Translations under genes and position numbers: made by a program | Part shown: positions 2,103 to 44,276 of the stretch, piece after piece | Layout of the letters: each line of letters opens with the position of its first letter | Position numbering within the stretch: position 1 is the stretch's first letter | NCBI RefSeq assembly: GCF_000001735.4 | Contig: NC_003075.7 | Coordinates: 18,477,001-18,541,000 of the forward strand | Length of the DNA stretch: 64,000 nucleotides | DNA from: Arabidopsis thaliana | Taxonomy: Eukaryota > Streptophyta > Magnoliopsida > Brassicales > Brassicaceae | Direction of reading: 5' to 3' | The notes under the pieces: model-generated | The model's database searches: none | The model's input: only the letters and a program-made list of their open reading frames with translations | Told to the model about the DNA's origin: nothing

Positions 2103-4184
2103 ATGATGAGACCGAAGAGATCATCAGACACAGTCCATGTCTTCAATCTTATGGTCCTCTGTTTCATTGCCCTGTTTTTTTCTTCCGTCCTCTGTCAGGG
2201 AAAGATCCGGAGATTCAAATGGGAAGTGAAGTACGAGTTCAAGTCACCGGATTGTTTCGAGAAGCTAGTAATCACAATCAATGGTAAGTTTCCAGGTCCC
2301 ACCATTAAAGCTCAACAAGGTGACACCATCGTTGTCGAGCTCAAGAATAGCTTCATGACTGAAAATGTCGCTGTCCATTGGCATGGAATCCGACAGGTAC
2401 GTAAACATCCTCGTAAGCACTCGGTGAATGACTGAAAAAGATTGATTTATATATGTTTCAGATTGGGACTCCATGGTTCGATGGAGTAGAAGGTGTTACT
2501 CAATGTCCAATTCTTCCTGGAGAAGTCTTCATTTACCAATTTGTCGTTGATAGGGTAAAGAGTTATAAAACTCACATTAAAGTTTCAATCTTTCTTTATG
2601 TTTTTATGTTAAGTTTTGAAATTTGTTTGTAGCCTGGTACATACATGTATCATTCACACTATGGGATGCAGAGAGAGTCTGGATTAATCGGAATGATTCA
2701 AGTTTCTCCTCCGGCCACAGAGCCCGAACCGTTTACATACGATTATGACCGGAACTTTTTGTTAACTGATTGGTATCACAAAAGTATGTCAGAGAAAGCC
2801 ACCGGTTTAGCATCCATACCCTTCAAGTGGGTCGGTGAGCCACAAGTGAGTTCTTTTTTCCATCACTCAAAAGTCAGATTCTTGTTTGATCGATCAAATT
2901 TTATGTTTATGGATGATTCTTATTTGGATATATTATCAGTCGCTTATGATACAAGGAAGAGGAAGATTCAACTGCTCAAACAACCTAACCACTCCTCCAA
3001 GCTTAGTGTCTGGAGTATGTAACGTCTCAAACGCTGATTGTTCGCGTTTTATTCTTACGGTGATTCCCGGAAAGACATACAGGCTTCGAATAGGTAGCTT
3101 GACGGCTCTCTCTGCTCTCAGTTTCCAAATCGAGGTACTTAGCTTGAGAATCAAGCCAATCATTTTCATTGTCTTCTCTGTTTCTTTCTTTTTCGTATTC
3201 TAATGGAAGATGGGTTAAATTAAACAACAGGGACATAATTTGACAGTTGTTGAAGCAGACGGACACTACGTAGAACCATTCACGGTGAAGAATCTCTTTG
3301 TATACTCCGGCGAAACTTATTCCGTACTTCTCAAGGCAGATCAAAACCCTCGACGAAACTATTGGATCACCTCAAGCATAGTTAGCCGTCCGGCGACAAC
3401 TCCACCGGCAACCGCTGTACTCAACTACTACCCGAACCACCCACGACGGCGTCCTCCCACGTCGGAATCATCCAATATCGTACCGGAATGGAACGACACG
3501 CGCTCCCGTCTTGCACAAAGCCTAGCAATCAAGGCGCGTCGAGGATTCATTCACGCGCTGCCGGAGAATTCTGACAAAGTCATTGTGCTTCTGAATACAC
3601 AAAACGAAGTCAACGGATACAGACGTTGGTCGGTCAACAACGTTTCCTATCACCACCCTAAAACGCCGTACCTAATCGCGTTAAAGCAAAACCTCACAAA
3701 CGCGTTTGACTGGCGTTTCACGGCACCGGAGAACTACGATTCTCGAAATTACGACATATTCGCGAAACCCCTTAACGCTAACGCGACGACGAGCGATGGA
3801 ATCTACAGATTGAGATTCAATTCAACCGTGGACGTGATTTTACAAAACGCGAATACAATGAACGCAAACAACAGTGAAACGCACCCGTGGCATTTACACG
3901 GTCATGATTTTTGGGTGCTTGGGTACGGAGAAGGAAAGTTTAATGAGTCGGAGGATCCGAAAAGGTATAACCGGGTCGACCCGATAAAGAAAAACACGGT
4001 TGCGGTTCAACCGTTTGGCTGGACGGCGTTGCGTTTTAGAGCGGATAATCCTGGCGTTTGGTCGTTTCACTGCCACATTGAATCGCATTTTTTCATGGGA
4101 ATGGGGATTGTGTTCGAGTCTGGGATTGATAAGGTTTCTAGTTTACCTTCTTCTATAATGGGATGTGGTCAGACTAAACGCTGA
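2103..4184 (+). CDS. L-ascorbate oxidase-type multicopper oxidase (cupredoxin), secreted
   Basis: Five exons rebuilt from splice signals: 2103-2396, 2462-2554, 2633-2845, 2940-3134 and 3231-4184, giving 582 residues with all junctions in frame. A signal peptide covers about residues 1-32. All four copper-binding blocks are visible: HWHG (92-95), HSHY (136-139), HPWHLHGH (483-490) and HCHIESH with the following GM (545-556). The enzyme should bind four coppers and be active. The family oxidises ascorbate or phenolics with O2 in the apoplast; the exact substrate cannot be read from sequence. I recall this as At4g39830. Start: the first in-frame ATG of a MetMet pair; the frame upstream has only non-ATG codons. 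The last codons and the 3' flank recur, diverged, at 5781-6016. Confidence 0.93.
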
Positions 4185-5780: not shown

Positions 5781-6016
5781 GTTTCTAATTTACCTTCTTC
5801 TATCATGTGATCTGGCTAAACACTGATTATATTCTTTAATCAAATTCGAATAGAAAACATTCATTGTTTAATCATTGAGACAAAATTTTCAATTAATGTA
5901 TGTTATGTTAGAAAACAATGTGGATATTTTGCTATAATTTATGTGTCACAAATTTAGCAATGGTTTGGTCTACCTACGTTAAGAAAACTTGTTGTGATTT
6001 GGACTGGGGACAGGTT
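5781..6016 (+). repeat. copy 2 of duplicated oxidase 3' end
   Basis: A diverged copy of 4134-4401. It starts at the bases matching the last coding codons of the oxidase (gtttcta) and continues through the 3' flank (shared blocks include ctataatttatgtgtcac and agcaatggtttggt). It begins only a few bases after the MITE terminus at 5774. It carries no usable reading frame and is a truncated gene-tail duplication. Confidence 0.85.
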
Positions 6017-38881: not shown

Positions 38882-39919
38882 ATGGAAGACGATGGTCAGA
38901 GCTCCGTCGCCGAAACCCTAGATCCGGCATTGCAGAAGAAGCACCATGATATGCTCGAGCGTCTCTCCGCTCGTCACCAAGCTCGAAAATCAGATTCACC
39001 TGACTCTTCCTCTTCGTCGTCCTCCACTCTTGAATCGACTTCCTCGTTTCTCGCTAAATTCTCCGATTCAAAGCGATCCATCGAGTCTCGGATCGCCGAG
39101 TCACGACTCGCTTCCTCCTCTACGGATTCGTCAAAGCTTAAGTCGGATCTTGCTGAGATCTCCGTAGCCATTGACAATCTCGAGAAGCTTCTCGCTGAGA
39201 ACTCGTATTTTCTTCCTTCCTACGAGGTTCGATCCTCTCTGAAAATCGTATCCGATCTCAAACAGAGTCTCGACATTCTCTCCGGCGAGTTAGTCCCGAA
39301 GAAGAAATTCTCGTTCAAGAGCAAATCAACGACCAAAAAGCCGGAATCAAAACTCCCGGAGATACAGAAACCCGACGTCGTTTTACCTCCGAAACTCGTC
39401 CCCGTACGCGATTCTCCGGGATTGAGAAACAAACACGGAGAGACTCTTGTGAAAAGCTTCGAAGGCTCGTCGATCGGAGAATTCACATTGTCGGATCTTG
39501 ATTCATGTCAAGTAAAATTAACAGGAACGGTCAACGCTCTGTTCCTTCACCGACTGAAGAAGTGTAGTGTCTACACAGGTCCAGTGATTGGTTCGATTCT
39601 GATTGATGACGTAGAAGATTGTGTTCTGGTATTGGCGTCGCATCAGATCAGAATCCATTGCGCTAGGAAGAGTGATTTCTACCTGAGAGTGAGGAGTCGT
39701 CCCATAATTGAAGACAGTAACGGTGTCAGATTTGCTCCTTATTGTTTGGATTACAAAGGGATTGATGAAGATTTGAAGACGGCTGGTTTGGAGGAGGAGA
39801 CTAACAACTGGGCCAATGTGGATGATTTCCGGTGGCTGAGAGCTGTACAGTCGCCGAATTGGTCACTTTTGCCGGAAGAAGAAAGGGTCTCTTTGCTTAC
39901 CATTTCCGGGGATTCTTGA
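38882..39919 (+). CDS. POR: tubulin-folding cofactor C, PORCINO
   Basis: Intronless, 345 residues, starting at the ATG of MEDDGQSS. The N-terminal spectrin-like helical part (about 15-130) includes KKHHDMLERLSARHQARK and a Ser-rich stretch. A basic linker follows (KKKFSFKSKSTTKK). The C-CAP/cofactor C beta-helix domain (about 190-320) has GLRNKHGETLVKSF, GEFTLSDLDSCQVKLTG, IGSILIDDVEDCVLVLASHQIRIH and the conserved DFYLRVRSRPIIEDS. Cofactor C works in alpha/beta-tubulin heterodimer assembly. In Arabidopsis porcino mutants lack microtubules and die as embryos (knowledge). Confidence 0.95.
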   Translation: MEDDGQSSVAETLDPALQKKHHDMLERLSARHQARKSDSPDSSSSSSSTLESTSSFLAKFSDSKRSIESRIAESRLASSSTDSSKLKSDLAEISVAIDNLEKLLAENSYFLPSYEVRSSLKIVSDLKQSLDILSGELVPKKKFSFKSKSTTKKPESKLPEIQKPDVVLPPKLVPVRDSPGLRNKHGETLVKSFEGSSIGEFTLSDLDSCQVKLTGTVNALFLHRLKKCSVYTGPVIGSILIDDVEDCVLVLASHQIRIHCARKSDFYLRVRSRPIIEDSNGVRFAPYCLDYKGIDEDLKTAGLEEETNNWANVDDFRWLRAVQSPNWSLLPEEERVSLLTISGDS

Positions 39920-40509
39920 TCAAAATCATCAGGTACCAAAATTACCTTAAAGCTTGAACATTTATACGAGAAATCATCAGGCATTCTTTTAAACAAGTCG
40001 ATTTGTATTCGATTATGATTGTGTGTTCCCAAAGAATGTTGCTTCTTTACATATTTTGCCTTTATTTGTGATCTTGGAGTTGGTTTCATGGAGGTAATTT
40101 TTTGATCTTGAATATAGAGAAAAGCCAAATACTAAGAGCATGTATATGGGTGATACCCATATAGTATCATAAAGAATGTTTTAGTATTATTTATAATATT
40201 TGTTTATTGTTTGAGATTTTTTATGATACTCTTATTAAATATGTTTACATTGATGATACCACATGTTTAAGTATCATGAAATAAATAAATTTGCAATATG
40301 GATTTTAGAACATGAGATTATTCTTTGAAATACATTCTTCTTTTTTTTATCTATTATCATCTTTCTGTCGTTCATTAGATTATATATAGAGGGATGACCT
40401 GAATCAAGCCTCAAAGTTCGATCTTATTCTATGAACACAAAGTGACAACACACAAAACAAGATCTAATCCTTTTGTACATAAAGAATGCATGAATTTATC
40501 TTAAGCTTC

Positions 40510-40695
40510 CTATGAACAAAATAAAGCACACTCACACAAATACAAACGCTCACACACACAATCCCGAGTTTCGGATGATTGCCATTTGCCACAGTAGAAA
40601 CCCGACGCCCATGATTCCTTAAGGTCCCTCATGCCATGAACTCCAGCGATGTAAATAAGCTGGGTGACTGAGAGTATGATCAAGAACGCCTCCAT
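40510..40695 (-). CDS. short ORF inside the transposon-like unit
   Basis: ATG at 40695, 61 residues, preceded by a splice-acceptor-like AG at about 40701-40702. It starts with a hydrophobic segment (FLIILSVTQLIYIAGVHG) followed by a polar part with several Cys. No family recognised. It may be the end of a chimeric transcript or a chance frame. Confidence 0.25.
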   Translation of the reverse strand: MEAFLIILSVTQLIYIAGVHGMRDLKESWASGFYCGKWQSSETRDCVCERLYLCECALFCS

Positions 40696-40817
40696 GGTTC
40701 TCTACATAGAAAAATGAGAGAAAATGGACGTGTCATGAAGGCAACAATGGTGGGATTTCCAAATTTTAATCTATAATTTGGTCACAGTACCATTTCTCTC
40801 AGAATTTAAGAAAGAAC

Positions 40818-41028
40818 CTGACAGAGAAATGATTTCAAATCGGCCCTGCAACAACAACACATCCAATACAGCTCAATACAAGATTTAAATTCCAGCTCCA
40901 TTCGATAACAACAAAGGTCAAAATGAGGCCAAGGAGCAAGCAATGCACAAAGCACATGAGTAAATTTATACCTCATACTTAACAGTTCCAGTAGGATTGC
41001 TATTGTTAGCTTGACGAAGCATCACATT
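40818..41028 (-). pseudogene. AHL (AT-hook nuclear-localized) PPC-domain fragment
   Basis: The minus-strand exon-like piece 41028-40972 encodes NVMLRQANNSNPTGTVKYE. A GT donor, a short intron and an AG acceptor follow, then 40845-40818 encoding GRFEIISLS and another donor. Joined, this is the PPC-domain signature of AHL proteins (LRQ...TVKYEGRFEIISLSG), with an intron between E and G as in intron-bearing AHL genes. No AT-hook or remaining PPC sequence was found, so it is a captured or degraded piece and not a working gene. Confidence 0.7.
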
Positions 41029-41293
41029 AGTAGATTCAAAGATCACATGTCGAGAACATACTAGAAAACTAAGAAGCCAAATCTAAAGGCAAAACAGAGA
41101 CTAATGTTGAATCAGATAAATATATGAAGTTTTTTAAAAAGGAAGTATTTTTTCTGTTCTTCTCATTACAAATCTTTTCATTCTCTAGTCATATTTGTAC
41201 ATAAAGAATGACAATTGAAATTGAACAACTTCTACAAGAAACAAATTCAAGAATCATCAAAACAATGTGCAGAGAGAGGATATGTATACTCAC

Positions 41294-41409
41294 CAACCTT
41301 CAGGAATGAATACTGCATCACCAACGTTAAGAGTAACCTCCTGTGACTGCTTCAGAGAATGCTCTCCCCTTAAGATGGTTTCTCGGTGCTTTTTCTCACC
41401 TGTCACAGT
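41294..41409 (-). pseudogene. JmjC-domain fragment (JMJ31-like)
   Basis: An acceptor-like TATCAG precedes an open stretch whose second half reads EHSLKQSQEVTLNVGDAVFIPEGW, then a GT donor. The pattern (SQ..TLN.GDA.FIPEGW) is the C-terminal part of the JmjC fold in HSPBAP1/JMJ31-like proteins. The rest of the domain, including the HxD iron site, is absent. Confidence 0.65.
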
Positions 41410-41498
41410 CTGATAACACAAAATAGCAACGATACACTCAATCTTTCAATAATCGAAGAACAGGCAGAAGAATTTCAACTATCCGGATCTGAGCTTAC

Positions 41499-41590
41499 TT
41501 GTCGAGAAACTCTTGGTCGACGACGGCAGAGACGACGAGGAGTGGGTTTCTCATTCCCAAGAGGATTCCATCGAAATCAGAGGAAGCCAT
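41499..41590 (-). other. possible first exon of a chimeric transcript
   Basis: ATG at 41590 opens a frame (MASSDFDGILLGMRNPLLVV...) to a GTAAG donor after 41499. It does not join in frame to the JmjC fragment using the splice sites I can see. I recognise no family. It may be another captured exon. An unannotated locus such as At4g39930 could correspond. Confidence 0.3.
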
Positions 41591-42786
41591 GGATGATGAT
41601 CTGAGAAGGATTTTCGAGAAAAGGGAAGAGATTCAGAAGGAATCGAAACAGAAGAAAATTGATCGGCAAAATTAGAAGGAATCGGAAAATTCCCCACGAG
41701 AGAGAATTTTTTTGAGAGAAACAGAAGGAATTTTTTTTCGACAAAAATAAATGGACGACCAATCAGAGCCTGCCACGTAATATGAGACTGAGTATCAGAA
41801 GTCTCAATAGACTGATACGGCTCAGCCCAGTTTTTTGTGGTTGGTCCATTAAAAAATTGTAAATGGGCTACTGATACTCTAAAAATATGAGCTATGTACA
41901 TGGTCTAAGTTGAGTCTGCCACAAAAAACCTAGTACAGTTGGGCTACAAGGCCCAATATAAATGTAAGCCCTTTAACAAAGAGGGAACCGCCTGCTTTGA
42001 CTGTTGAGAACAACTTGCTGGATTCTTTTTTCTTCCCGGTAAATTGAGAAACCAAGAAAATCAAACAAGTACTGCAATAAGAAAGTGTTGAATCTGATTT
42101 TGGAAATATTATTTGACTCCATTATTCCCTTCATAAATATATACAGTCAAGCATATTTATTTGAACAAGAAAATAAAGTCATACTAATAAGCATAGAGAT
42201 AAAGTAAGATCATAAAATAAGTATAAAGACATATAGCTTATTAAATCACATGGGTCTCTGAATGGGTATTGGTAGGTTGGTAGATGGAACAAAATCAGTC
42301 ATACAATCATTTTCCCAAAAGATTGGCCTCCATCATCAGTGATTCAGTGATTCATGCACACATACCAAAACCACTATATAGTTTTTTTTTTATTATTATT
42401 CAAATTACACAAATAAATAAATAAACCTTTTTTATTAACCGGTAAAATATTCCCATACCTGTTTCGTCAAAAAAAATAACCGGTAAAATACTAATAATTT
42501 GTTCTGTTTTGTGTAAAAAAGAATGTATGATTTTATTTTGATTATTTTTTTTGTTAATAAGACATTAAGACTATTGAAATGATGTTGGAATATGGTCATG
42601 TGTTTTTTGTGGAGGAATTATATAGTTGGTAGTAGTAGTACCATTACTCTCCTTCTCACCTGTTTTCTTCCTCTTAAAGTCTTCTCTATATATTTTCAAT
42701 ATAATCCGTCTTTCTTATACATAAACTTATTTTGTACGATCACATAAAACTGTAAACCCCCACACAGTTATTGGCCGTCGGATTCA

Positions 42787-44276
42787 ATGGAAGGATTAGC
42801 TATCAGAGCATCTCGACCGTCGGTTTTCTGTTCTATTCCAGGTCTCGGCGGCGATTCCCACCGAAAACCTCCAAGTGACGGTTTCCTCAAGCTGCCTGCG
42901 TCGTCTATTCCGGCGGACAGCCGAAAATTAGTAGCGAATTCTACTTCCTTTCATCCAATCTCAGCCGTTAACGTCTCTGCTCAAGCTTCCCTCACCGCTG
43001 ATTTTCCCGCCCTTTCAGGTTCTCCCATCTCTCTCTGTTTCGTCATATAGCAGATCGTTCACATTTCAGAAAAAGCAATTTAGGTTTAAGCATCTCCACA
43101 AATCGTGTTGTTGTTTTTTTCTGACCATTTTTACAATCTCTTTAACTTTGTGTTTGCGCAGAAACTATACTGAAAGAGGGAAGAAATAACGGAAAAGAGA
43201 AAGCAGAGAACATCGTGTGGCACGAGAGTTCGATATGCAGATGCGACAGACAACAACTTCTTCAACAAAAGGGTTGTGTCGTTTGGATCACTGGTCTCAG
43301 TGGTTCAGGGAAAAGCACTGTTGCTTGTGCACTAAGTAAAGCATTGTTTGAAAGAGGCAAACTTACTTACACACTCGACGGCGACAATGTCCGTCACGGC
43401 CTTAACCGTGACCTCACTTTCAAAGCAGAGCACCGCACCGAAAACATTAGAAGAATTGGTACACAATTTTTCCTTTCTTCCAAAAATTATAATCATGTGT
43501 TTACTAACTCATGAAACCAATTTCTTTAACGCGTTTTATGGTATATGCTTAATGGTTTTTGTAAAGTGATTTGTGATTGATCTTTAAATTTAATATCAGG
43601 TGAGGTGGCTAAGTTGTTTGCTGACGTCGGAGTCATTTGTATAGCAAGTTTGATTTCTCCGTACCGGAGAGACAGAGACGCGTGCCGGTCCTTGTTACCT
43701 GACGGCGATTTCGTCGAGGTACGTACGCTATAACGTTTTACTATATATGAATTTGCTTGTTATAGAAGATATATTAGTATACATTGATTACATTACGAAA
43801 ACTTACTTTGATTTAGGTCTTCATGGACGTTCCTCTTCATGTGTGCGAGTCGAGAGATCCAAAGGGGTTGTACAAGCTTGCACGTGCAGGCAAAATCAAA
43901 GGTATCCCAAAAAAAAGAAAACGTACTTGTATAAAAGTTGACTTTGACTTTTTATTTTGTTCGATTCGTAGAGTTTGACTTATTGACCTAATTGTTGAGT
44001 GTAACTTATTGACCTAGCTAATTGTTGAGTTTTCTTGAATTAATTATCCAGGCTTCACTGGAATCGACGACCCTTACGAGGCACCAGTGAATTGCGAGGT
44101 TCGTCACGTGAATGATCAGATAGATTTTGGAACGTAAATTTGTACTAATAAAGTATTGATGTAATATCCTCCAGGTAGTGCTGAAACACACAGGAGACGA
44201 CGAGTCGTGTTCGCCACGTCAGATGGCTGAGAACATCATCTCTTACCTGCAAAACAAAGGTTATCTTGAGGGCTAA
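42787..44276 (+). CDS. APK2: adenosine-5'-phosphosulfate kinase 2, plastidial (APK2/AKN2)
   Basis: Six exons (42787-43018, 43162-43458, 43600-43718, 43817-43901, 44052-44098, 44175-44276) encode 293 residues. It phosphorylates APS to PAPS, the sulfate donor used by sulfotransferases, including those finishing glucosinolates. The first ~75 residues are Ser/Pro-rich and basic, a chloroplast transit peptide. The kinase follows: P-loop GLSGSGKST (about 122-130), [10 protein letters not shown], an FxxxHRxENIRRIGE block, [13 protein letters not shown], then [40 protein letters not shown]. All motifs are intact. Its pathway partner CYP79B2 is about 4 kb downstream. Confidence 0.97.

What the first reader, a model, noticed from the sequence alone, without database searches (positions are those of the whole stretch)
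40136..41905. Transposon-like unit that carries pieces of two unrelated host genes
Matching 14-bp ends, shared TAA/CTAA flanks and clusters of the TGATAC word near both ends mark a 1770-bp unit. Inside, on one strand, are a JmjC (JMJ31-like) piece and an AHL PPC-domain piece. The AHL piece keeps its intron position, so capture was at the DNA level, not through mRNA. If real this is a gene-shuffling (Pack-TIR) element, possibly of the PIF/Harbinger group, that could make a chimeric transcript.
Basis: partly seen in the sequence, partly recalled or inferred. Interest (0 to 1): 0.7.

Follow-up and report, generated by a model that had tools for sequence, protein, structure and literature searches.

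The report
Jumping element built from six genes
A small non-autonomous jumping element in a thale-cress chromosome carries pieces copied from six unrelated genes, all facing the same way and laid out like one gene; such elements are known from rice and maize, and I found no report of this superfamily doing it in Arabidopsis.

Summary
Window 40136-41905 is a 1770-bp element with imperfect inverted ends and a TAA target duplication. Its flanks are single-copy, its ends repeated. I paired 26 elements with such ends in this genome; 23 of 26 have identical TTA or TAA duplications, the PIF/Harbinger signature.

The interior holds six donor pieces, not two: AWPM-19 last exon, AHL13, an LRR-gene intron, JMJ31, a SacI phosphatase and the ADK1 first exon (82-97% identity). 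All six lie sense on the minus strand. Introns are retained, so capture was not from spliced mRNA.

Two partial elements share the ADK1 junction; a second intact element carries two other donors in the same orientation. Junctions show fillers and a slight excess of microhomology, which suggests template-switching repair (inferred). The simplest splicing meets a stop after 32 residues, so a chimeric protein is not supported; transcription is untested.

Pack-PIF elements are known in rice and maize; a survey of known Arabidopsis ends found no new Pack superfamily. New member of a known kind; the one-way, gene-like order (8 of 8 oriented donors) is the interesting part.

The parts
40133..40135 (.). 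left target-site duplication TAA
40136..40297 (+). left end of the transposon family (tip GAGCATG..., TGATAC words)
   Evidence: 40 matches to 40136-40336, itself included; pattern TWAGAGCATGNNNATRRGTGATA 77 matches (some of them right tips) against 5 for the reversed control
40298..40776 (-). donor 1: AWPM-19-like gene, end of last intron, last exon (exon start 40701) and 3' flank; 93.4% to C1:10324369-10324852
   Evidence: donor gene PF05512, 103.5 bits without and 120.1 bits with this exon
40777..41031 (-). donor 2: AT-hook PPC-domain gene (AHL13 by recall), exon part - whole intron - exon part; 97.3% to C4:9967795-9968049
   Evidence: donor PF03479
41032..41051 (.). 20-bp filler of unknown origin between donors 2 and 3
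41052..41281 (-). donor 3: interior of the first intron of an LRR gene, splice sites left out; 82.4% to C3:15644356-15644577, with a poorly matching middle that holds a 17-bp copy of 40472-40488
   Evidence: donor PF08263 in the exon before and LRR repeats in the exon after
41284..41371 (-). donor 4: JmjC/cupin gene (JMJ31 by recall), exon part plus its 5' splice site; 94.3% to C5:6706999-6707086
   Evidence: donor PF13621
41362..41475 (-). donor 5: SacI-domain phosphatase gene (SAC5 by recall), intron end, 3' splice site and exon part; 96.5% to C1:5936242-5936355
   Evidence: donor PF02383 match weak, 19.4 bits against a cut-off of 27
41294..41409 (-). predicted fused exon: SacI part joined in frame to JmjC part (open frame 41293-41445)
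41477..41637 (-). donor 6: adenosine kinase gene (ADK1 by recall), 5' leader, start codon at 41590, exon 1 and 5' splice site at 41499/41498; 94.4% to C3:3012075-3012235
   Evidence: donor exon matches solved adenosine kinases; a later donor exon matches PfkB below the cut-off
41638..41756 (+). right subterminal stretch of unknown origin; it aligns along its length only with the sister elements L047 and L048, a few other members align into its right part (from 41714 at the earliest)
41757..41905 (+). right end of the transposon family
   Evidence: 23 matches to 41680-41905, itself included; pattern SYATGTACATGGTCTWA 44 matches against 7 for the reversed control
41906..41908 (.). right target-site duplication TAA

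Best explanation
It is a non-autonomous PIF/Harbinger-type transposon that has become a Pack-TYPE element: between its two family ends it carries pieces of six unrelated genes, copied from loci that still exist. Shown: the ends, the duplication, the family, the donors, their shared orientation, and one junction shared with two other copies. Inferred: the pieces were gathered over more than one round, when breaks inside the element (or excision gaps) were repaired by copying from other loci and from sister elements, with switches at short matches or with small fillers, and the product was then moved by a transposase made elsewhere. Its minus strand is laid out like a gene (leader and start codon from ADK1, internal exons, last exon and 3' flank from AWPM-19), so transcription from the right end towards the left is plausible, but a chimeric protein is not the likely product.
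For: Exact TAA duplication and single-copy flanks. 26 paired family elements, 23 with identical TTA/TAA. Six donors follow one another along 40298-41637, all sense on minus. Introns and splice sites retained. The ADK1/transposon seam is shared with L047 and L048 at other sites, and the JmjC piece shares a small change from JMJ31 with L047. Fillers of 20, 2 and 1 bp at three of five window seams; exact microhomology over the six filler-free seams of this element and L047 sums to 11, P 0.019; a 17-bp internal repeat, 2 of 2000 shuffles. A second intact element (L049) carries two other donors.
Against: No autonomous partner found: no pair of nearest facing ends between 1857 and 8000 bp, and one weak end-like match in the 15 of 63 DDE_Tnp_4 matches whose flanks I held. 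Only one of the five window seams shows exact microhomology (4 bp); one is blunt and three have fillers and were left out of the test; the two outer seams (40297/40298, 41637/41638) were not tested. The origin of 41638-41756 is unknown. The six-piece set was matched as a whole only here, so movement after the last capture is not shown. Empty site, transcription and mobility untested. First spliced frame ends after 32 residues.
Confidence: 0.85

Rival explanations
1. The six pieces were joined in one event, by end-joining of broken DNA, inside or beside a family element, so that capture was not stepwise.
For: One blunt and three filler junctions of five; five of the six pieces lie at 93-97% identity to their donors.
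Against: The ADK1/transposon seam is shared with L047 and L048, whose other contents differ, and the JmjC piece shares a change with L047: the history has more than one step.
Confidence: 0.12
2. Capture by another mechanism: a hybrid of two neighbouring elements that lost their facing ends and took in the DNA between them (the Pack-CACTA model as reported in PMC13317346).
For: It is the model reported for Arabidopsis Pack-CACTA elements (passage seen).
Against: As described it takes in the chromosomal DNA between two neighbours; here six pieces from separate loci on contigs C1, C3, C4 and C5 follow one another, and the searches of the interior named no family end between them.
Confidence: 0.05
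3. A functional chimeric host gene kept by selection on the minus strand.
For: All six pieces sense; start codon, splice sites, last exon and 3' flank in gene order; SacI and JmjC parts joined in frame.
Against: ADK1 exon 1 ends in phase 2 and the next exon starts in phase 0, giving a stop after 32 residues; the second AHL exon runs into a stop. No transcript data were available. The one paper found with AT4G39930, the locus number I guessed, lists it for a Nodulin-like protein entry that does not fit this interval.
Confidence: 0.07

Closest known systems
Pack-PIF elements of rice and maize (Gisby and Catoni 2022, PMC8903248; one section and passages read)
   Same: Non-autonomous, mostly TTA/TAA duplications, PIF-type ends, captured gene sequence.
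   Different: Found there with cereal PIF ends. The same authors ran ends of elements previously described in Arabidopsis and report no new Pack superfamily in that plant; this family evidently escaped.
Arabidopsis Pack-CACTA and Pack-MULE elements (PMC7385966, PMC12312487; passages read)
   Same: Gene-bearing non-autonomous elements in the same species.
   Different: Other superfamilies. The 2020 review, in the passages I saw, names MULE and CACTA derivation for Pack-like structures and counts 3 Harbinger families.
Multi-fragment maize Helitrons with stepwise capture (PMC3288121; abstract and passages read)
   Same: Several gene fragments gathered in steps, with relatives holding different sets.
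   Different: Helitrons make no target duplication (recalled); here a TAA duplication and inverted ends are present.
Pack-TIRs by gap filling or fork switching in animals (PMC8277862; abstract and passages read)
   Same: Microhomology, blunt joins or short insertions at junctions.
   Different: Animal elements; I saw no six-donor case in the passages shown.

Membership tests
PIF/Harbinger superfamily | 3-bp TTA/TAA target duplication | tested here: met
   TAA/TAA here; 23 of 26 paired family elements identical TTA or TAA
PIF/Harbinger superfamily | short terminal inverted repeats shared by a family | tested here: met
   imperfect, 11 of 14; patterns 77 against 5 and 44 against 7 in reversed controls
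PIF/Harbinger superfamily | mobilised by a DDE transposase (with a second Myb/ORF1 protein) of a partner with the same ends | tested here: inconclusive
   63 DDE_Tnp_4 matches in the genome; in the 15 with flanks held, one weak end-like match; no partner identified
Pack-TYPE element | non-autonomous, host gene sequence between transposon ends, parental copies elsewhere | tested here: met
   six donors
Pack-TYPE element | moved after capture | tested here: inconclusive
   the ADK1/transposon seam occurs at three sites, which implies movement after that capture; the six-piece set itself was matched as a whole only here
Pack-MULE | 8-11 bp duplication and long inverted repeats (recalled) | tested here: not met
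   3-bp duplication, short imperfect ends
Pack-CACTA | CACTA tips | tested here: not met
   tips are GAGCATG/GACCATG
Helitron | no target duplication, no terminal inverted repeats (recalled) | tested here: not met
   TAA duplication and inverted ends present

The most novel reading that the evidence does not exclude
In this family, capture or retention is directional: gene pieces are gathered in sense order from the right end to the left, with an N-terminal piece beside the right end and a C-terminal or last-exon piece beside the left, as though transcription through the element (nascent RNA, R-loops, or selection for a transcribed, spliceable unit) guided which pieces are joined. Eight of eight donors that I could orient in two intact elements are sense; two further L047 pieces could not be oriented, and L047's JMJ31 and ADK1 pieces, also sense, were not counted because they are not independent.
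Probability: 0.2. Interest if true: 0.75.

Novelty: new member of a known kind. Interest (0 to 1): 0.5.

Why it matters
It shows that the best-studied plant genome holds multi-gene Pack elements of a superfamily for which a dedicated survey reported none there, and gives a small, datable set (one intact six-donor element, two partial sisters, one independent two-donor element) in which the order of captures and a directional bias can be tested across the many Arabidopsis assemblies.

Tried and rejected
Chimeric protein from the minus strand: rejected for the simplest splicing (stop after 32 residues). TGATAC as a window-wide signal: not enriched. Pack-MULE, Pack-CACTA and Helitron: defining features not met. 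Autonomous partner: not found. Repbase family name: not established (one search listed no paper). AT4G39930 as a gene name for the locus: the one paper lists it for a Nodulin-like protein entry. Chimeric-RNA loci of PMC6545605: the 12 of 15 passages shown do not name this place. A long-read study of Arabidopsis gene-transposon transcripts (PMC10241880) has no mention of AT4G39 loci, AHL13 or ADK1 in its main text.

Not tested: empty site in A. lyrata or accessions, RNA, methylation. Two L047 pieces (C1:9920567 and the 394-bp repeat) were not oriented: Pfam gave nothing for either.

Full report
What was checked. Gene names below (AHL13, JMJ31, SAC5, ADK1, ADK2) are recalled, from map position and protein sequence; the families are. 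The element lies between a tubulin-cofactor-C gene (38882-39919) and an open frame with an APS-kinase match (43215-43514).

The unit. TAA at 40133-40135 and 41906-41908 bounds a 1770-bp element. The flanks (39921-40135 and 41906-42120) have one match each in the genome, themselves; the left end has 40 matches and the right end 23, itself included (lower bounds). A scan for the two end patterns gave 77 and 44 matches against 5 and 7 for reversed-pattern controls; the first pattern also picks up right tips. These are 95 distinct ends; pairing nearest facing ends within 8 kb gave 26 elements, with 43 ends left unpaired. Of the 26, 23 have identical TTA or TAA on both sides. Twelve are 246-259 bp, eleven 314-566 bp, and three long: this one (1770), C1:19068170-19070032 (1857; locus L049) and C3:18757108-18758307 (1194).

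The contents. Genome searches with the interior and a local comparison give, from left to right: AWPM-19 gene, last exon and 3' flank, 40298-40776, 93.4%; AHL13, 40777-41031, 97.3%, with its intron; 20 bp of filler; LRR-gene intron, 41052-41281, 82.4% overall, but 90.1% and 94.8% in its two outer parts; JMJ31 exon and 5' splice site, 41284-41371, 94.3%; SAC5 intron end, 3' splice site and exon, 41362-41475, 96.5%; ADK1 leader, start codon, exon 1 and 5' splice site, 41477-41637, 94.4%. The donors lie on C1 (two), C3 (two), C4 and C5. All six are sense on the window's minus strand. Pfam support is weak for two of the donor fragments given: SAC5 (19.4 bits, cut-off 27) and ADK1 (18.5, cut-off 25.8); the ADK1 first exon matches solved adenosine kinases. 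The last AWPM-19 exon raises the family score from 103.5 to 120.1 bits. The stretch 41638-41756 has no source found outside the family.

Layout as a gene. Read on the minus strand: ADK1 exon 1 to 41499; a fused exon 41409-41294 (SacI part, then JmjC part, in one open frame); an intron that starts with the JMJ31 splice site and continues in the LRR intron; the AHL13 exon-intron-exon; the AWPM-19 last exon from 40701 and its 3' flank. The LRR intron's own splice sites and a 5' splice site after the second AHL exon are missing, so later splicing would need cryptic sites. Splicing exon 1 to the fused exon shifts frame and stops after 32 residues. The layout is gene-like; the protein is not.

Relatives and history. 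L047 (C3:9557) and L048 (C3:17321) share the ADK1/transposon seam and the adjoining right end with this element, including three bases that differ from ADK1 in all three; one of these agrees with ADK2 and may be a change in ADK1. L047 further holds JMJ31 pieces in order with two internal skips, a second ADK1 piece, and two other pieces whose genes I could not name. Its JmjC piece shares a small change from JMJ31 beside the splice site with this element. No left tip was found for either sister in the DNA held. The history thus had several steps and probably exchange between elements.

A second Pack element. L049, intact with TAA/TAA, holds the C-terminal part of a jacalin-domain gene (83% to C3:7530275-7530698) and the N-terminal part of a coiled-coil gene (84% to C3:10608738-10609490; a neighbouring paralogue, C3:10621043-10621814, matches at 83%, and 94% against 90% in the N-terminal stretch, so either may be the donor). 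Both are sense on the element's minus strand, the N-terminal part beside the right end; the matched stretch seems to stop just short of the start codon (read by eye). With the six above, 8 of 8 oriented independent donors are sense (two-sided sign probability 0.008, my arithmetic). This was noticed after the fact, in two elements, and is not corrected for that.

Junctions. In one search I read nine internal seams (five here, four in L047); the two outer seams here were not tested. Three of the five here have fillers (20, 2 and 1 bp) and were left out of the test. Exact microhomology at the other six is 0 and 4 here, and 2, 4, 1 and 0 in L047. Random joins of the donor loci give a sum this large with P 0.019, and two or more of six at 4 bp or more with P 0.006. 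The effect is modest and the sample small. A 17-bp word of the AWPM-19 flank recurs inside the LRR piece; a 17-bp repeat arises in 2 of 2000 shuffles. Both fit repair by copying with template switches, but do not prove it.

Literature. Gisby and Catoni (PMC8903248; section 8 read, other passages seen) describe Pack-PIF elements in rice and maize and state that ends of previously described Arabidopsis elements gave no new Pack superfamily. A 2020 Arabidopsis review (PMC7385966, passages) names MULE and CACTA derivation for Pack-like structures. In the listings, and the passages I opened, I saw no report of an Arabidopsis Pack-PIF; only open-licence full texts were searched. The original Pack-CACTA and directional Pack-MULE papers were not held; what I say of them is recalled or seen as cited in others.

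Noticed in passing
L016 1501-2694 (C3:18757108-18758307): A 1194-bp family member with identical TTA on both sides whose left end is interrupted after about 36 bp by roughly 800 bp of other DNA, perhaps a nested element.
   Followed up: partly
L047 4136-4529: A 394-bp stretch of the sister element matches three other places (C5:7513895, C2:1877661, C2:2978823) at 94%, and several more at 73-81%: a dispersed repeat or gene family of unknown kind (Pfam nothing).
   Followed up: partly
L047 about 3710-3760 and 5853-5900: By eye, the sister element seems flanked by a short imperfect direct repeat, which may bear on its missing left tip.
   Followed up: no
C5:20592414 and C5:20625756: Two left ends 33 kb apart with identical 23-bp tips and equal scores to the query, probably a segmental duplication.
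   Followed up: no
window 41638-41756: Right subterminal stretch with no source found outside the family; it would be the leader or promoter region of a minus-strand transcript.
   Followed up: partly
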